Source of the DNA: a virus
Length of the DNA: 39,999 nucleotides
Virus record (IMG/VR): IMGVR_UViG_3300048930_000238
Span: 1-39,999 of that record
Strand: one strand, 5' to 3'
The position numbers and the translations under genes are program-made. Of the stretch, positions 1-39,980 are shown one piece after another. The notes below the pieces were generated by a model. The model ran no database searches. It was given only the letters and a program-made list of their open reading frames with translations, and was not told the origin of the DNA. Position 1 is the stretch's first letter; each line of letters starts with the position of its first letter.

Positions 1-89
1 CTAACGGCTGCCTTCAGCAGATCGCAGCCAACCAACTATGAACAACACGCAAGACGATGACGCGATTCTGCTGCAAGGCTTTGTTCTCT
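1..89 (+). other. integron attC site 1 (5' edge cut by window)
   Basis: The window opens inside the AAC box (CTAAC, 1-5), followed by the arm CGGCTGCCTTCAGCAGATCGC. The matching right arm, CGATTCTGCTGCAAGGC, ends at the GTT box GTTCTCT (83-89). Left arm GCCTTCAGCAGATCGC and the reverse complement of the right arm pair except for single unpaired bases, which is the typical attC fold with extrahelical bases. Unlike attC sites 2, 3 and 4, its central segment has no AGGAG before the ATG at 38. The GTT box departs from the classical GTTRRRY consensus, but it is complementary to the AAC box that ends the same cassette (753-760). Confidence 0.8.
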
Positions 90-436
90 CTCCTCATCCG
101 TTGAGGGTGCAGCGAACCAGGAGCCGTGGGGCGAGGACACCGAAGGGGGCCGTATATGTTGGGCGTCCTACGGTGTGGGGGAACCCATTTCGTGCTGAGT
201 ATCGCGACGGTTCATGGCGAGTAGTTCGAGCCGCAAGCGGGAAATCGGTTTGCGCGATGCCAGGCCAAAATGAAGCAAAGGCATACGCGGTGCGACTGTA
301 TCGCGAACTGATCCGTCGCGAGCCGACGCTGGCGATCCGAGCCAAGTCAGAACTGGCGGGCAAGAAACTGGCGTGCTGGTGCTCGCTGGACGGCCCGTGC
401 CACGCCGATGTGCTGGCGGAGATTGCCAATTCCTAG
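38..436 (+). CDS. DUF4326 domain protein (cassette gene)
   Basis: A 132-residue protein whose residues about 25-130 match the DUF4326 family as I recall it: YVGRPTVWGNPF near the N terminus and a C-terminal LACWCSLDGPCHADVLAEIAN with paired Cys and His. DUF4326 has no established biochemical role; the Cys/His-rich end suggests metal binding (inference). There is no in-frame ATG after the one at 38, which lies inside the preceding attC, so residues 1-16 (ending DDDAILLQGFV) are encoded by attC sequence. TTG or GTG codons around 101-107 are the only starts inside the cassette proper. The stop at 434-436 is followed directly by a relic attC arm. Confidence 0.8.
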   Translation: MNNTQDDDAILLQGFVLSPHPLRVQRTRSRGARTPKGAVYVGRPTVWGNPFRAEYRDGSWRVVRAASGKSVCAMPGQNEAKAYAVRLYRELIRREPTLAIRAKSELAGKKLACWCSLDGPCHADVLAEIANS

Positions 437-4979: not shown

Positions 4980-5846
4980 TCACCCTGCTGGTTTCATCCA
5001 GTCCTGCGGTTGCGTTGTCGTCCACACACACACGGCACCACGGCACGCACTGCGGAACGTGGCGGCCGAGTCGTACAAAACACGGTCGTACGAGTCGGCG
5101 TACGGGTATATGTCTTGGTCGTGCTTCCACCCAGCGACCGCGACAGCATGGCCCCTGCGACCGTAGGCGATGACCCCGCCATGCAGCAGGGCCGAGACAG
5201 CTTGATCCTCGTTCTCGATGATGATGATTTCGAGTGGACGGAAATGCTTCGCCGTTTCCTCCCAACCATCGGGAAGATTGCGAAGGCTCACCCACGGGCC
5301 GATGCTCTGATTGCTCGACTCCTTGCCGCCAGCCGATCCATGCAGCGTATGCCGCAGGCCGTACTCGGCCGGTTGCACGCGATCCGGCAGCCACCCTCGC
5401 CGCTGGGCGATGTTCACGTTGCGGACGATGTTGCTGCCACCCCATTGCGACGGATTCGCTTCGAGATAGATAGACAGCGGCGAAAGGTACACGTCGCCCT
5501 TTGACGACTCTGGATAACGGAACCCCTTCTTAGGTCCATCGGCGTAGATGATGCCGCGAAGCCGATTGCGTGCGCCTTCGCCGCTCCGCGTCACGGCATG
5601 TCCGGCACATTCGTGCGACCCGCCCTGATGGGTGTACCTCGAAAGATAGTTCAGCCCCCAAGTGCGATTGCGGTCGTTCGCTTCCGCCATCGCCTTGCGT
5701 TCGTGCTTCGGCACCATCATCTCAGGCGGGAACGCACGTGCCGAGTCGCCGCACGCCGCAAAGAGGTTGTCGGCGGTATCCTCGTCGCCATCGACGTAGC
5801 CGGTGTTGTGCGACGGGAAAACGTCGATGAGGCTGCGGTCGATCAC
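4980..5846 (-). CDS. papain-like (C1-type) cysteine peptidase
   Basis: 288 residues from a GTG overlapping the upstream stop (GTGA) and preceded by GGAGG. The segment HQGGSHECAGHAV holds Gln74 and Cys80 in the spacing of the papain QGxCGSCWA site. His233 in RGHAVAVAGW matches the catalytic-His strand, and an Asp-rich stretch (YADSYD, 249-254) stands where the Asn of papain would be. No clear signal peptide. The family is normally proteolytic; the substrate is unknown. It lies next to a serine protease gene, so this phage encodes two different protease folds side by side. A peptidoglycan-related role as lysis enzyme is possible but unproven. Confidence 0.7.
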   Translation of the reverse strand: MIDRSLIDVFPSHNTGYVDGDEDTADNLFAACGDSARAFPPEMMVPKHERKAMAEANDRNRTWGLNYLSRYTHQGGSHECAGHAVTRSGEGARNRLRGIIYADGPKKGFRYPESSKGDVYLSPLSIYLEANPSQWGGSNIVRNVNIAQRRGWLPDRVQPAEYGLRHTLHGSAGGKESSNQSIGPWVSLRNLPDGWEETAKHFRPLEIIIIENEDQAVSALLHGGVIAYGRRGHAVAVAGWKHDQDIYPYADSYDRVLYDSAATFRSACRGAVCVWTTTQPQDWMKPAG

Positions 5847-6754: not shown

Positions 6755-7246
6755 TTAGGACGAGAACGAACCCACGCCGATGATCGCAATGTCGATGCTC
6801 ACGGCGGTTGCGGTCGGGTTGTGAATCCGCAACGCCGAGCCGGCCCAATCGCTCGCAGCGATTCCGGTCGTGTAGCTGCAAAGGTGGTACTCGCCACCGT
6901 ACGGCACGCGGTGGCCGGTCACGCCGGTTGCGTAGCCGACGAACAACTGAGCCCCGGTCGTTGGGGCCACCTTGACCAAAATCTCGCGAACGTCGGTGAA
7001 CGCCACGAGGCCGGTCGAGCCGAACGAGTTGTATTCGATGCCGGAGAACGGGAACGTCAGCGTCGATGCCCCGGTAACAATGTGGGTGTTCGTGTAGCCG
7101 ACCGTCGCCTGATCCGGCCCGGTGCCGTGCGAGATTGTGCGGCTCGTGCGGACTTCGGCACTGCGGGTGACGGTGCCAACGGAATGGGTTGCCGTCAGCG
7201 TCCAGTTGAGCCGGGTCGATCCTCTTGCGGTGAGGCTATTTGACAT
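6755..7246 (-). CDS. probable minor structural protein
   Basis: 163 residues, rich in Thr, Ser, Gly and Val with alternating hydrophobic strands along the whole length and no Cys pairs or catalytic motif. Phage structural and fibre-associated proteins have this look, but I do not recognise a family. AGGAGCAGGA directly before ATG 7246 is a strong ribosome-binding site. Confidence 0.5.
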   Translation of the reverse strand: MSNSLTARGSTRLNWTLTATHSVGTVTRSAEVRTSRTISHGTGPDQATVGYTNTHIVTGASTLTFPFSGIEYNSFGSTGLVAFTDVREILVKVAPTTGAQLFVGYATGVTGHRVPYGGEYHLCSYTTGIAASDWAGSALRIHNPTATAVSIDIAIIGVGSFSS

Positions 7247-31761: not shown

Positions 31762-32307
31762 TCACCCCGTCTTCTTGAGTTGAGCGATCATCGCCTCTCG
31801 GTCGTTCGCCCCGAACATCGGCGACACGTTTCCTTCGGCGTCCACCTTCCCAGCCACAGGCTCCTGCCCAAGCAACCGCTTCCTCGCGTATCGCAGCAAC
31901 CGAAACGCCGTCACGGACTTCATGCCGTCCAGCTTTTGCAGCACCATGTGCTTGATCTTCTCGAACTCGCTGGGCGTGGCGTTGTCGATGACAAACGTGA
32001 ACTCATCGGCCATGCGGCGGTCCTCGGCATCGTCGATGTCGAGTTTCACCTTTTCGACATGCTCAACCTTGGCTCGCTTCGTGATAGCGTTCCTGGCGGT
32101 AAGCAGTTCCCGGTAGGCGGCAAGAATCCACGCAAGCTGCGGAAATGCCGACTCTTTCTGCCGTTTCACGTTCCGCAAGGCGTCGTACAGCAACGTCTGG
32201 TCAAGCATCGAAAGGTCATCATGCCAGAGCTTTCGCTCTTCCGGCTTTGGGTCAAAAAGCGGCCATAGGTCGTTGATCGTTTCCCGGTTGTCGTCCCACG
32301 TTTTCAC
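31762..32307 (-). CDS. helicase-loader-like protein
   Basis: 181 residues from a GTG overlapping the initiator stop (GTGA). The N-terminal half shows W..LWPLFDPKPEERKLWHDDLSMLDQTLLYDALRNVKRQKESAFPQLAWILAAY, the spacing seen in phage loader proteins of the G39P/DnaI-associated type. A central basic helical region and LLRYARKRLLGQEP follow. It probably brings the host replicative helicase to the phage origin. Assignment is moderate. Confidence 0.5.
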   Translation of the reverse strand: MKTWDDNRETINDLWPLFDPKPEERKLWHDDLSMLDQTLLYDALRNVKRQKESAFPQLAWILAAYRELLTARNAITKRAKVEHVEKVKLDIDDAEDRRMADEFTFVIDNATPSEFEKIKHMVLQKLDGMKSVTAFRLLRYARKRLLGQEPVAGKVDAEGNVSPMFGANDREAMIAQLKKTG

Positions 32308-33074
32308 AGCGTTCCCCTCCTTGGTGTCCTTGCCCCCGAACCAGCCATCTGCCGCTCGGCCTTGGGCTCGGCAAACTCGCCTGCCCGGATCCTGTCGATG
32401 AACTCAAAGAACCGCGTCATCGGCACCGGAGTGGCGAAGTATCGGCGGCTCGGCAGCATCGCCAACGCTTCCCTGGCACACTCAAGCCACCCCGGTGATG
32501 CAGCCAAGTCAACCCAGTTGTGCGGGGGCGTCAGGTGATCCCACCGCTGGGCTCGCTCGGTCTGGTTCCACTCCGCGAGCCAGCGGTCCCATTCCACGGC
32601 TGCCCACCCTGGCTTGCGAAACTCGTCAGGCGGATCGCTCGCGGTGTGTGTGTGTTCTTTCTCTTCTCTTCTCTTCTCTTCTCTGGTCACACTTTTGTCA
32701 CGCTCGGAGCGTGACAATTTCGTGACACATTCGTACCTCTCTTTTTGCTTCCTACTGCGGGAAAGTGCCCTGTTTTTTGCACTCTCGGACAGGTGCCGAT
32801 CAAAATTCGGGACTTCGAGCGAGCCATTGCGGACCCGAAGCCAACCAACTTTGATGAGCGCGGACGCGAAACCATCGTGACCAAATGCGGAATCAAGCGT
32901 GACATTTGTCACGCTGTTAGCGTGACCATCTGCCATTTGGTCGTCGCACCACGACCAGAACCGAACGCATAGCCCGAATGCGTGGTCGATGTGAACTCCA
33001 AGGCTGTCGGCGATTGCCATGACTTCCGGCTTACGGGCCGTAGCCTTCTCAACCTTTATCCAATCGCCAGCCAT
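32304..33074 (-). CDS. phage replication initiator-like protein
   Basis: 256 residues. The N-terminal 110 residues (DWIKVEKATARKPEVMAIADSLGVHIDHAFGLCVRFWSWCDDQMADG) match the winged-helix N terminus of phage replication proteins of the DnaD/O type. A charged linker (TREEKRREEKEHTH), encoded by a TTCTC-type tandem tract at 32659-32683, connects to a C-terminal helical domain. GGAGGATGATTTC precedes the ATG. The origin often lies within such a gene. Confidence 0.65.
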   Translation of the reverse strand: MAGDWIKVEKATARKPEVMAIADSLGVHIDHAFGLCVRFWSWCDDQMADGHANSVTNVTLDSAFGHDGFASALIKVGWLRVRNGSLEVPNFDRHLSESAKNRALSRSRKQKERYECVTKLSRSERDKSVTREEKRREEKEHTHTASDPPDEFRKPGWAAVEWDRWLAEWNQTERAQRWDHLTPPHNWVDLAASPGWLECAREALAMLPSRRYFATPVPMTRFFEFIDRIRAGEFAEPKAERQMAGSGARTPRRGTL

Positions 33075-33205
33075 GAAATCATCCTCCGTGAAAGGTGGGC
33101 CGCAGGCGGGCTGACACTACCGGGTAGCGGACCGGGAGCAGCCGAAGCTGCCCCGCCTGCGAGCCCATATTGGGCGTGAAGAACCGCTAACCACGAGAGT
33201 GTCAG
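33075..33205 (-). promoter_or_regulatory. structured 5' leader of the replication operon
   Basis: The transcript from the motif at 33211 would begin near 33205 and pass through nested stems: AGTGTCAG (33198-33205) with CTGACACT (33111-33118), and GGGC plus CGCAGGCGGG (33097-33110) with CCCCGCCTGC plus GAGCCC (33151-33166). A leader of this size with strong stems may serve as an attenuator or translation control. Confidence 0.45.
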
Positions 33206-33210
33206 TCCCG

Positions 33211-33232
33211 CTATACGTCAGTTTACCAGTGT
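33211..33232 (-). promoter_or_regulatory. promoter-like motif before the replication operon
   Basis: On the minus strand this reads ACACTGGTAAACTGACGTAT. It matches the site at 15988 over GGTANACTGACGTATAG and those at 26526 and 26625 over ACACYGGTANACT. TAAACT would be the -10 box; no good -35 box. About 137 bases upstream of the initiator gene. Confidence 0.5.
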
Positions 33233-33257: not shown

Positions 33258-33563
33258 TTACTGTGCCAACCGATACAATGCTTCCCGCCCACCGCTGGCC
33301 GACCTCGTCTCGCCATCGCGAACGATGAACCCGTCCTGCCGCAGGTCCGGCAATCGCTTGCTGACCTGCGCCACGCTCAACCCGGTACGCCGCACAATCT
33401 CCGACTGCCCAGCCGGCCCGGCGTTGAACGCTTCGAGGATGACCTTGCAATGCCCGTGGACCGGAGCCCGCTTCGCCGCGTCGTGCGACGTTGGCGGATC
33501 GCTCTTGCGCGCCAACGCGAACAATGGAAGGTCGGTTGCCTGGTCGATAAACGTCCTTACCAC
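33258..33563 (-). CDS. winged-helix DNA-binding protein
   Basis: 101 residues from GTG 33563, with AAGGAGG upstream. SDPPTSHDAAKRAPVHGHCKVILEAFNAGPAGQSEIVRRTGLSVAQVSKRLPDLRQDGFIVRDGETR is a known phage arrangement: a DPxTSHxAA lead followed by a winged helix. It probably regulates phage genes. It lies directly downstream of the pentamer array in transcription direction. Confidence 0.7.
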   Translation of the reverse strand: MVRTFIDQATDLPLFALARKSDPPTSHDAAKRAPVHGHCKVILEAFNAGPAGQSEIVRRTGLSVAQVSKRLPDLRQDGFIVRDGETRSASGGREALYRLAQ

Positions 33564-33589
33564 AGATTCGCCTCCTTGCTAACTGAAAA

Positions 33590-34035
33590 GACCACGCCAT
33601 GCCGTGCCCATACACGCCTTGCCATTCCGAGCCGGAACCAACCTGACCGATCCTTGGCCCGCCATGACTTGCCTCGGTTGTTTTGCGACCTCGCCATGCC
33701 GAACCAGGCCCTGCACTTACCAGCCGATCCTTACCAATCCGCGACATTCCGCGCCGCGCCGCAGCGGGTGCATCCTCGCCCTGGTTGTTTTGTAACCACG
33801 CCGAACCGCACCATGCCGAGCCCCGCCATTCCTTCCCATGCCGCTCCGATCCACGCTGTGCCACGCCACGATTGTTTTGTAAACCGTGCCGAACCGAACC
33901 CATCCGTGCCTCGCCACACCGAACCAAACCCCGCCGGTCCATGCCCCGCCCGTGTTAGTTTGTGACCTCGCCGCGCCGCGACTCGCCGAGCCAAGCCGGG
34001 GCTTGCCGGACCAAACCGGGCTTAACCGCGCCATG
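33590..34035 (-). repeat. NNNCC pentamer array with TTGTTTTG spacers
   Basis: About 450 bases in which CC recurs every five bases with variable bases between (plus strand NNNCC, minus strand GGNNN). Blocks of 10-17 units are separated by TTGTTTTG at 33678, 33785 and 33872 and by TTAGTTTG at 33955; spacing is 107, 87 and 83. In the block from 33883 all 13 pentamers end in CC. Spacer surroundings can pair (GGTT..AACC). Frame is not kept between blocks, so it is not coding. It fills the early operon gap between bet and the winged-helix gene. The 118 bases from 34036 to 34152 hold only a small stem (GTGGC with GCCAC near 34078-34096). Confidence 0.8.
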
Positions 34036-34152
34036 AGCCGCCAAAAACTCCCGCCTGCGGAATCGAGCCGCAGCCCCGTGGCTTATGAGGCCACAAGGGA
34101 ACCTTCACGGGATGACCAGGCCGCCGCCGGAAAGGCGACAGCGGCGACCGAC

Positions 34153-35010
34153 CTATGCCGTCACGACCTCCTGGCCTTGGATCAATCCCGCCCTCGCCAT
34201 GATGCTGGCCTTGGCTTCCGCAAGATCGGCGTCAGTGAAGAGCCCGTCGTCGTGGTATCCGTTAGCTGTGGACCTCAGCTTCTCCAACGCCTCGATGCTC
34301 TCGGCCGACTCAACACCCTCGGTGAGTGCCGCGATGGCATCCGCTCGAGGGTCGCTGTCCACCACGACCGGCTCCGGCTTCTTCTTCGGAGCCTTGGCGG
34401 ACTCGATGGCCTTGCGTGCCGCCGCGTGGGCCTTGCTCGCCGGAGCCGTATCGGCCGGCTCGCTCGCGACGTTGACGATCCGTGCTGCCTCGTCCTCGTC
34501 GTAGATGCCAACGAACCCGAACGCCAGGCGGGCACACTGGATCATGGCCTTGTGCCGCAGCATCCGCCGAGGGTGCGAGCCCCAAGGCCCGGTGCCACGC
34601 TTGCACTCAGCGTAGAACTCCTTCACCCGGATCGGATGAGCCCGGTCCTTGCGGTGGATGATGCACTCAATCCACGCCGGCACCTGGCCGTTGACGCTGT
34701 CGGCCTCGACGAACTCCATGCCGTCGAACTTGTCGTGCGTGTTGACGATGCGAGCCCAGCCATCGACGCCCACGACCGGCACAATGCCGTTGCTCTTGTC
34801 GGGGAAGGCGTAGATTTCCTTCGTCCACGGGTTGAGCCCGTACTGGTCGGCCACGATCAGCAGGGCCATCATTTGCTCGTTGCTGACGTCACCTTTGAAC
34901 GCCGTAGCCTTGAGCGTGGACAGCATCTTCGCCGGCTCGACGTGGAACCGGCCCGCCATCTTCGACAGCAGGCTTGGCGGTGCCTGCGTGGTTGCAACTT
35001 CCGTGGTCAT
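34153..35010 (-). CDS. bet: Bet/RecT single-strand annealing protein
   Basis: 285 residues. LNPWTKEIYAFPDKSNGIVPVVGVDGWARIVNTHDKFDGMEF is the core sequence of the Bet/RecT family, followed by CKRGTGPWGSHPRRMLRHKAMIQCARLAFGFVGIYDEDEAARI. The C-terminal 80 residues are Ala/Lys/Glu-rich and probably flexible with a helical end. It anneals single strands in phage recombination together with the exonuclease encoded just upstream. AAAGGAGTGAG precedes the ATG. Confidence 0.92.
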   Translation of the reverse strand: MTTEVATTQAPPSLLSKMAGRFHVEPAKMLSTLKATAFKGDVSNEQMMALLIVADQYGLNPWTKEIYAFPDKSNGIVPVVGVDGWARIVNTHDKFDGMEFVEADSVNGQVPAWIECIIHRKDRAHPIRVKEFYAECKRGTGPWGSHPRRMLRHKAMIQCARLAFGFVGIYDEDEAARIVNVASEPADTAPASKAHAAARKAIESAKAPKKKPEPVVVDSDPRADAIAALTEGVESAESIEALEKLRSTANGYHDDGLFTDADLAEAKASIMARAGLIQGQEVVTA

Positions 35011-38223: not shown

Positions 38224-38461
38224 ACCCGCATCCTACGGGTCTCCTGTAGCCGGCGATACCAAATTCTTGCCCCCTTGCCCTGGCGGACGTAGGGTTGACC
38301 TAGCGAGCCGTCGCGTCCGGTCCTACCGGTACACGACGACCCCTAGAATGGTGGGGGCAGGATTCGGATTTCCGCGTCCACCCCACCGACCGGCCGAAAG
38401 ATCAGGCCGGCGACTTTGACTGGCATGGATGCGTGACCTACCTACTACGGGGGGGCACGCA
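38224..38461. promoter_or_regulatory. divergent control region between excisionase-like gene and integrase
   Basis: A 238-base non-coding stretch. It holds CCTACCGGTACAC at 38323-38335, which resembles part of the phage motif, and TAGAAT at 38344-38349 as a possible -10 box for the integrase. I could not identify a firm -35 box on either strand. A short G-rich run just before 38462 may serve as ribosome-binding site. Confidence 0.4.
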
Positions 38462-39352
38462 ATGAGATTGCAAGAATACTTCGACGACGTCTACCGTCCA
38501 CTGAAGCTGAGGGGAAAAAGCCCAGCGACGACAAGGCTCTACGGCTGCCTCGTGTCGACGCTCGCGAAGTTCCTTGGTCGTCCGCCAGACCTGGAGGACA
38601 TTGCCGACGAGATGGTTTTGGCTCGGTTCCTCGAATGGAGGACGGCACAGGGCCGTAGCCCGTTCACCGTGGAGAAGGAGAGGCAGCAGCTTGTGGCACT
38701 GGCCCGGCTTGCGAATGAGCGGCGGCTGATCGCTGCCATGCCGTCCTGCGAGGCAGCACCGCTGCCAGACCCGGTGCCAATGGCTTGGAGCACCGAGGAT
38801 CTGCAACAGCTCTACGCCGTGGCGTCGTCGATGCGTGGGCTTGTTGGCACCGTCCATGCGTCTCTCTGGTGGCCGACGCTGATTTCGGTTGCGTTCCAGT
38901 CGGGCGAACGGATCGGTGCCATCATGGCGGTGCCTCGGTCGTGCTACGCGAGGCCATGCCTGACGTTCACGGCACTCACCAGAAAAGGCAAGCGGCGGGG
39001 CCGCGTCTGCGAACTCACTGAGGACGTCTGCGATGCAGTGGAGGCCGTCATGGCGTCGACAAAGTGCGGGCGTGAGTCGCCGATTTTTGTTTGGGATGGA
39101 GCGAAGACGTACCTCTGGGACCGTTTGCGATGGATGCTCGATAAGGCTGGGCTTGCTGGCAAGCGGCTGGGCTTTCAGCAGATACGCCGCTCGTCAATCA
39201 GCATGGTGGCCCGTGCGGGAGGCGATGCCGTTCGCCACGCGGGCCACGCCCAGGCGGCCACGACAAAACGCTGGTACATCGACCCCCGCTTCGTTGATCA
39301 CGGGCCGCGGGCCTGCGATCTGCTACCGAAGCTGCGGTCGAAGAAGAGGTAG
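38462..39352 (+). CDS. int: tyrosine recombinase (phage integrase)
   Basis: 296 residues. The N-terminal 95 residues form the core-binding helical domain (ATTRLYGCLVSTLAKFLGR..EKERQQLVALARLANERRLI). The catalytic domain has Arg150 in SGERIGAI, Lys175 in TRKGKRRG, Arg242 in QQIRRSSIS, His262 in GHAQAATTKRW and Tyr272 as nucleophile. The His normally two or three residues before the second Arg is replaced by Gln. I do not see the extra helix of integron integrases, so this is the phage enzyme. ATG 38462 was chosen over 38429 because G-rich sequence precedes it. It lies next to the right prophage junction. Confidence 0.88.
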   Translation: MRLQEYFDDVYRPLKLRGKSPATTRLYGCLVSTLAKFLGRPPDLEDIADEMVLARFLEWRTAQGRSPFTVEKERQQLVALARLANERRLIAAMPSCEAAPLPDPVPMAWSTEDLQQLYAVASSMRGLVGTVHASLWWPTLISVAFQSGERIGAIMAVPRSCYARPCLTFTALTRKGKRRGRVCELTEDVCDAVEAVMASTKCGRESPIFVWDGAKTYLWDRLRWMLDKAGLAGKRLGFQQIRRSSISMVARAGGDAVRHAGHAQAATTKRWYIDPRFVDHGPRACDLLPKLRSKKR

Positions 39353-39457: not shown

Positions 39458-39844
39458 ATGACTCAGAGATCACTGACACCAGACGAGCAGGCCGAACTCA
39501 AGTCGCTGAACGATGCGGTCAAAGCGGCCATTGAGACCAGGCGAAAATGGCTGGACGCGAAGATGCACGAAATCTCGCGGCTGAAGGTTGGCGACGGAAT
39601 CTACGACCTTGACACCGGGCGGTACGTTGGGATGGTGAAGCGGCTTCATCGCACATGGCAGGACAAGCACGAGGGCGTGCTGGACGCGAACCCCTACTGC
39701 GACTACGAGTTTGAGTCGGAGCCTGGCTTCATCACTAGCACGGCGAGGTATTTTGGGTGTCGTTCGTTCGGGTCGCGAGAGGATGCCGCCAGGGTTCTGG
39801 CCGACCGAGCGGCTGCTTTGGCGAACTTCCGATCCGTAAGCTAA
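39458..39844 (+). CDS. cassette protein, unknown function
   Basis: 128 residues with GAGAGGA nine bases before the ATG. Helical N terminus (PDEQAELKSLNDAVKAAIETRRKWLDAKMHEI), then a strand-rich part around GDGIYDLDTGRYVGMVKRLHRTWQDKH and ANPYCDYEFESEPGF. Not recognised. The stop lies in the AAC box of the following attC, as in other cassettes here. Confidence 0.6.
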   Translation: MTQRSLTPDEQAELKSLNDAVKAAIETRRKWLDAKMHEISRLKVGDGIYDLDTGRYVGMVKRLHRTWQDKHEGVLDANPYCDYEFESEPGFITSTARYFGCRSFGSREDAARVLADRAAALANFRSVS

Positions 39845-39928
39845 CGGCTGCCTTCAGCAGATCGCAGCCAGAGGAGTAACCATGAGTAACCAACGTGATC
39901 GCGATTCTGCTGCAAGGCTTTGTTCTCT
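39838..39928 (+). other. integron attC site 4
   Basis: The AAC box AAGCTAAC (39838-39845) matches the GTTAGCTT at 39426. Left arm CGGCTGCCTTCAGCAGATCGC and right arm GCGATTCTGCTGCAAGGC pair as in other copies. The GTT box GTTCTCT is at 39922-39928. GAGGAG precedes ATG 39882. Confidence 0.85.
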
Positions 39929-39980
39929 CTGTCCTGGTTTTTTCTCAGTTATCCGGACTTTCCGGAAATCTCTGAAGTAG
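39882..39980 (+). CDS. attC-encoded leader peptide
   Basis: A 32-residue frame from the attC start codon, with GAGGAG six bases upstream. Here the spacer is one base longer than in the other sites, so the right arm is read in another frame (DSAARLCSLC). It ends at TAG 39978-39980, ten bases before an ATG (39990) that could start the next cassette gene, cut by the window end. Confidence 0.35.
   Translation: MSNQRDRDSAARLCSLCPGFFSVIRTFRKSLK

What the first reader, a model, noticed from the sequence alone, without database searches (positions are those of the whole stretch)
33590..34035. Array of NNNCC pentamers with T-rich spacers
For about 450 bases CC recurs every fifth base while the three bases between vary freely, in five blocks separated by TTGTTTTG-like elements 83-107 bases apart. 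The block from 33883 is perfect in 13 of 13 units. The minus strand, which would be transcribed, is GGNNN repeated, able to form two-layer G-quadruplexes or bind a protein with five-base register. It is non-coding by frame shifts between blocks. I know no described element with this design.
Basis: seen in the sequence. Interest (0 to 1): 0.85.

Follow-up and report, generated by a model that had tools for sequence, protein, structure and literature searches.

The report
Orphan guide-RNA array against sibling phage
The odd five-base repeat is a set of five guide RNAs of the newly described VIPR type (a CRISPR-like RNA-guided system carried by phages), found here without its protein partner, and one guide spells out a gene start in a nearly identical rival phage while the phage's own copy no longer matches.

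Summary
In detail: CC recurs every fifth base at 33589-34042, far above shuffled sequence. The sense (minus) strand is GGYNN repeated. A blind DNA-pattern search found such arrays in at least 111 other viral contigs. In 84 of 112 array loci a gene of PHROG 4652 lies within 710 bp, always on the GG strand. That protein has a Csm3/Cas7 (RAMP) fold and matches PDB 36pp, 'SUSP1 Vipr'. The arrays are therefore guide RNAs (vrRNAs) of VIPR, an RNA-guided system described in a 2026 preprint (PMC13142463). The window holds five vrRNAs but no vipr gene. Decoded with the published 1-nt-skip rule, the fifth guide matches a near-identical sibling phage (L131) at 30 of 34 positions, at the start of its HTH gene, with all 14 skip bases inside the coding sequence at codon position 3. 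Shuffled guides reach at most 24. The window's own allele there matches only 20 of 34, and array plus allele replace the sibling's version between near-identical flanks. I read it as a guide-only array used in sibling-phage conflict, with Vipr supplied in trans (inferred).

The parts
33963..34042 (-). vrRNA-like guide block vr1, 16 pentamer units (12 GG)
   Evidence: Parsed in register; no target found
33881..33950 (-). guide block vr2, 14 units (14 GG)
   Evidence: no target found
33793..33867 (-). guide block vr3, 15 units (14 GG)
   Evidence: no target found
33686..33780 (-). guide block vr4, 19 units (14 GG), irregular
   Evidence: no target found
33589..33673 (-). guide block vr5, 17 units (13 GG); decodes to the start of the HTH gene of sibling phage L131
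   Evidence: 30 of 34 positions with a 1-nt skip
33674..33685 (-). linker CAAAACAACCGA between vr4 and vr5
   Evidence: motif not seen beside arrays in any other locus
33781..33792 (-). linker CAAAACAACCAG between vr3 and vr4
33868..33880 (-). linker ACAAAACAATCGT (approximate bounds) between vr2 and vr3
33951..33962 (-). variant linker CAAACTAACACG between vr1 and vr2
33258..33563 (-). winged-helix (HTH) gene whose allele in the sibling phage is the vr5 target
   Evidence: Pfam HTH_IclR; 92% protein identity to the sibling, divergent only at the 5' end
33520..33569 (+). own site homologous to the vr5 target; matches the guide at only 20 of 34
33514..34045 (.). exchanged segment: array plus divergent HTH 5' end; the sibling has 915 bp with a PHROG 5931 gene here
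   Evidence: blastn flanks 99.97% over 3073 bp and 98.1% over 3671 bp
34153..35010 (-). recT, upstream neighbour in transcription order
   Evidence: Pfam RecT 2.9e-26
32304..33074 (-). replication initiation protein, downstream of the HTH gene
   Evidence: PHROG 2509 6.4e-51

Best explanation
The segment is an array of five VIPR-type guide RNAs (vrRNAs), transcribed on the minus strand between recT and the HTH-rep genes of a temperate phage probably infecting Planctomycetota. There is no vipr gene beside it. Guide vr5, read by the 1-nt-skip rule, specifies the start of the HTH gene of a nearly identical sibling phage. The array-bearing phage carries a divergent HTH 5' end that the guide does not fit. 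Proposed mechanism: Vipr protein supplied in trans (by the host, a prophage or a co-infecting phage) binds the transcript and blocks transcription of the sibling's HTH-rep region, so that the resident phage excludes its sibling. SHOWN by computation: the array, its class, the lack of vipr in the contig, the guide-target match with wobble register, the escaping own allele, and the exchanged segment. INFERRED: transcription, Vipr in trans, repression and exclusion.
For: (a) Arrays found by DNA pattern alone have a PHROG 4652 gene within 710 bp in 84 of 112 loci, 84 of 84 on the GG strand. (b) That family matches PDB 36pp 'SUSP1 Vipr protein' at E=2.3e-39. Its model (pLDDT 93) is Csm3/Cas7-like, Foldseek E about 1e-6 and Z about 12.6. 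(c) The preprint PMC13142463 describes vrRNAs of GGY/NN repeats read with a 1-nt skip. (d) vr5 against sibling L131: 30 of 34 with skip 1; the best for skips 0, 2 and 3 is 22-24; 60 shuffled guides reach at most 24 over 6.0 million sites. All 14 coding skip bases fall at codon position 3. (e) Of 609 guide windows from all array loci, only this pair stands out. (f) Own allele 20 of 34; the exchange break is at 33513 and 34046. (g) Cousin phage L220 has a full HTH-array-vipr-array locus beside the homologous HTH gene; L089 and L341 also pair this HTH family with vipr. (h) Vipr occurs in 5 of 297 genomes of the order of a host-group genome.
Against: No vipr was detected in the window, so the array cannot work alone by the known mechanism. 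Four of five guides have no known target. GGY is looser than in published vrRNAs (55 of 81 units). No conserved structured 3' tail was established. Expression is unknown, and the trans supply of Vipr is not shown.
Confidence: 0.6

Rival explanations
1. Relic: a former VIPR locus that lost vipr; the guides are decaying and no longer act.
For: No vipr; 14 of 81 units have lost GG; vr1 and vr4 are irregular; the same HTH family sits beside complete VIPR loci in L220, L089 and L341.
Against: vr5 still matches its target completely in 14 of 17 units, including all four units whose GG is lost, and the target lies in the closest known relative.
Confidence: 0.2
2. A complete VIPR system whose Vipr is too divergent for the profile, or is encoded on a part of the phage genome missing from the linear contig.
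For: Vipr proteins are very diverse (mean column identity 19%); the contig is classed linear, often a fragment.
Against: In 84 of 84 loci vipr lies within 710 bp of an array, whereas here recT and the HTH gene directly flank the array; nothing significant in the window even with the filters off, and no RAMP loop motif.
Confidence: 0.15
3. Anti-VIPR decoy: the array makes Vipr-binding RNA that titrates a competitor's Vipr, the guide sequences being secondary.
For: Guide blocks without vipr; phages are known to use solitary repeats as decoys (own knowledge).
Against: A decoy needs no target, yet vr5 has a 30 of 34 match in the nearest sibling.
Confidence: 0.04
4. G-quadruplex or structural RNA element with no guide function.
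For: GG every five bases permits two-layer quadruplexes (sequence).
Against: Quadruplex term adds only 2 kcal/mol; it does not explain the vipr linkage or the target match.
Confidence: 0.01

Closest known systems
VIPR vrRNA arrays (SUSP1 and P. fulva type II and the other VIPR types; PMC13142463)
   Same: GGY/NN pentamer repeats, several guides of about 14-19 units, sense with the flanking genes, 1-nt-skip decoding with skip bases at codon wobble positions, phage-against-phage target
   Different: No vipr or recognised vap gene; looser GGY; short ACAAAACAA linkers seen in no other array locus fetched here; target is a sibling phage with an escaping own allele
Virus-borne mini-CRISPR arrays (PMC6858448, found by title and abstract; details from own knowledge)
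   Same: Guide array carried by a virus without effector genes, with guides against close relatives, proposed to use effectors in trans
   Different: Non-contiguous GGY/NN code and no CRISPR repeats; the partner would be Vipr, not Cas
Class 1 CRISPR Cas7/Csm3 backbone subunits
   Same: Fold of the partner protein family (Z about 12.6)
   Different: Five-base register with a one-base skip in the target instead of six-base segments; no cas genes

Membership tests
vrRNA (VIPR guide RNA) | Tandem YNNGG (GGY/NN) repeats, 9-16 per guide | tested here: met
   Five blocks of 14-19 units; 67 of 81 with GG, 55 with GGY; two blocks slightly longer than published, consensus looser
vrRNA (VIPR guide RNA) | NN dinucleotides specify DNA with a 1-nt skip | tested here: met
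   vr5 30 of 34 with skip 1, at most 24 for other skips and for shuffles; vr1-vr4 without target
vrRNA (VIPR guide RNA) | Skip bases at codon wobble position in coding targets | tested here: met
   14 of 14 coding skip bases at codon position 3
vrRNA (VIPR guide RNA) | Invariable structured 3' tail after the repeat tract | tested here: inconclusive
   Short ACAAAACAA linkers follow four of five blocks; no conserved structure was tested beyond single folding
VIPR system (complete locus) | vipr (RAMP) gene at the locus | tested here: not met
   no match in the 39,999-base record; recT and HTH flank the array
VIPR system (complete locus) | vap accessory gene | tested here: inconclusive
   No vap models at hand; the adjacent HTH family recurs beside vipr in L220, L089 and L341
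VIPR system (complete locus) | RNA expressed and bound by Vipr; target repression | not testable with these tools
   Needs RNA-seq and reporter assays
CRISPR array | Identical direct repeats separated by unique spacers | tested here: not met
   Only a 5-base motif and 8-12-base linkers recur; the tandem repeat finder reports no array here

The most novel reading that the evidence does not exclude
Solitary vrRNA arrays without vipr are a recurring class of guide-only weapon in phages ('mini-VIPR arrays'). They use Vipr from the host or from another phage to exclude close siblings, and spread by recombination as a cassette together with an escape allele of the targeted gene.
Probability: 0.4. 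Interest if true: 0.82.

Novelty: new variant of a known kind. Interest (0 to 1): 0.66.

Why it matters
VIPR was described only in 2026, from systems with their own Vipr. This case extends the guide code to a phage of Planctomycetota, tests it independently (one of four skip lengths works, wobble register 14 of 14), and shows a natural guide aimed at a nearly identical sibling with the self allele changed. If guide-only arrays act in trans, VIPR has an ecology like that of mini-CRISPR arrays, and vipr-less phages can be searched for guides and targets directly.

Tried and rejected
Rfam at gathering thresholds: no match in the window. Tandem repeat finder: misses the array because the units vary. 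Protein coding: blocks change frame and no family matched. G-quadruplex: negligible energy gain. Targets of vr1-vr4: exact 8-unit scans of IMG/VR gave 13-26 hits each, none extending significantly beyond chance (best 23 of 32, 23 of 28, 21 of 30, 25 of 38); vr2 and vr3 with up to 3 mismatches in 297 genomes of the host order: none. Guides of all other array loci against all fetched loci: no further significant pair. Vipr in nine MAGs with relatives of the window's terminase: none. The structured hairpins beside arrays in Felix O1-like phages (L214) have no counterpart found in the window. Searches for earlier papers on pentanucleotide repeats in phages gave nothing relevant.

Full report
OBSERVATION. 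Between 33590 and 34035 CC recurs every five bases: 51 lag-5 CC pairs against 14.7 +/- 3.4 (maximum 26) in 1000 dinucleotide shuffles, and the highest lag-5 windows of the contig lie there. On the minus strand, the strand of the neighbouring genes, it reads GGNNN. There are five blocks of 16, 14, 15, 19 and 17 units, separated by ACAAAACAA-like linkers; 67 of 81 units keep GG and 55 keep GGY.

SURROUNDINGS. The contig is a temperate phage with lambda-type portal, gpA-type terminase, tape measure protein, RecT, YqaJ exonuclease, replication initiator and integrase. Relatives of its terminase lie in Pirellula and other Planctomycetota MAGs, so the host is probably a planctomycete. The array lies between recT (34153-35010) and a small winged-helix gene (33258-33563), followed by the replication initiator (32304-33074), all on the minus strand.

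THE SAME ELEMENT ELSEWHERE. After removal of simple repeats, 112 loci, the window included, carried varied arrays; the base after GG is C in 66% and T in 23%. Genes between paired arrays shared one family, PHROG 4652, of unknown function. A profile found it in 84 of 112 array loci, always within 710 bp and always on the GG strand; none of the recT loci without arrays had it. The family also occurs in 155 named phage records. GGYNN arrays lie next to it in Felix O1-like VpaE1, Mycobacterium phage Saal, Pseudomonas LESphi2 and Medea1, and in Gordonia phage UmaThurman.

IDENTITY. A profile of 74 members matches PDB 36pp, 'SUSP1 Vipr protein', at E=2.3e-39. The AlphaFold model of one member (pLDDT 93) is a Csm3/Cas7-type RAMP: Foldseek E about 1e-6, Z about 12.6 over 165 residues. 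The literature search found the preprint PMC13142463 (April/June 2026), which describes VIPR: a RAMP protein, vrRNAs of 9-16 YNNGG repeats, and recognition of double-stranded DNA by the NN dinucleotides with one skipped base, leading to transcriptional repression in phage-phage conflict. I reached the protein family and the sense-strand rule before finding the paper.

NO VIPR IN THE WINDOW. The profile with filters off gives nothing better than E=1.7. PHROG scans of 30 window proteins give no PHROG 4652, a whole-record search at E<=10 gives nothing, and no open frame has the RAMP loop motif tested. By contrast a cousin phage, L220 (terminase 71% nucleotide identity), has HTH gene, array, vipr, array in a row, and the same HTH family lies beside vipr in L089 and L341.

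DECODING THE GUIDES. I joined the NN dinucleotides of each block with 0-3 skipped bases and searched all loci held. Guide vr5 with a 1-nt skip matches L131 at 30 of 34 positions. L131 is a phage 99.97% identical to the window over 3073 bp on one side and 98.1% over 3671 bp on the other. With skips 0, 2 and 3 the best is 22-24; 60 shuffles of the guide reach at most 24 over 6.0 million sites. A binomial estimate with match probability 0.27 gives about 1e-5 expected such matches over all guides and skips tried. The match covers L131 6819-6868, the first codons of the HTH gene (6825-7136), and all 14 skip bases inside the gene are third codon positions. All four vr5 units whose GG has decayed still match in NN. 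A repeat of period five cannot resemble a coding sequence of period three in this way by common descent, so a guide relation is the only explanation I can offer.

SELF AND NON-SELF. The window's own HTH 5' end, at 33520-33569, matches the guide at 20 of 34. The strong divergence from the sibling in this part of the genome is confined to one exchanged segment: window 33514-34045 (array plus HTH 5' end) against 915 bp in L131 holding a PHROG 5931 gene and the matching HTH 5' end. The weapon and the escape allele thus sit in one exchanged piece. Which allele is ancestral was not resolved.

OTHER GUIDES. vr1-vr4 have no significant target in IMG/VR sub-pattern scans or in fetched loci, and vr2 and vr3 none in 297 genomes of the host order. 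Among 609 guide windows from all array loci the vr5-L131 pair is the only outlier.

MECHANISM. By the published mechanism a Vipr-vrRNA complex at the HTH start would repress transcription there; the HTH gene precedes the replication initiator on the same strand. With no vipr in cis, the protein would have to come in trans. Vipr is present in 5 of 297 genomes of the host order, so a source exists, but rarely. Vipr-less, guide-sized arrays also occur in other long contigs (L033 and L078 of 105 kb, L112 64 kb, L040 56 kb, L037 45 kb), though contigs may be fragments and divergent Viprs may be missed. Rivals are a decaying relic, an undetected Vipr, or a decoy.

VERDICT. The repeat class is known since 2026; the window is an orphan vrRNA array, not a complete VIPR system, with a convincing natural target in a sibling phage. 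I am about 95% sure of the class, about 90% of the vr5 target, and about 60% of action in trans.

Noticed in passing
window 1-91, 748-840, 1428-1523, 39833-39930: Four copies of a ~90-base repeat with integron attC-like features (GCCTAAC...GTTAGGC ends, imperfect hairpin CAGCAGATCGC/GCGATTCTGCTG, an inner RBS and ATG) around the contig ends and beside the integrase at 38429-39352: a possible gene-cassette array in a phage. The integrase matched no NCBIfam model.
   Followed up: partly
L033, L037, L040, L078, L112, L021, L121, L100, L065 and others: Guide-sized GGYNN arrays in contigs of 18-105 kb without any detectable vipr: vipr-less arrays may be common.
   Followed up: partly
L131:6000-6794: A PHROG 5931 protein with a DGQHR (ParB-like) motif occupies exactly the place of the array in the sibling phage; ParB-like genes also lie beside or between arrays in L094, L084 and L113.
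   Followed up: partly
L220:6001-6270, L089:4575-5060, L341:641-1171: The HTH family targeted by vr5 recurs directly beside complete VIPR loci: possibly a regulator or accessory gene of VIPR.
   Followed up: partly
L214:3430-4010 and 5025-5430: In Felix O1-like phage VpaE1 each GGTNN block lies between a hairpin (CATCACTTAA...TTAAGTGATG) and a second hairpin with changing stem but nearly constant loop.
   Followed up: no
window 32655-32684: TTCTC pentamer tandem repeat (6 copies) inside the replication initiator gene.
   Followed up: no
window about 33108-33212: Inverted repeat (GCGGGCTGACACT ... AGTGTCAGTCCCGC) in the non-coding gap between the HTH gene and the replication initiator, possibly an origin or regulatory hairpin.
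   Followed up: no
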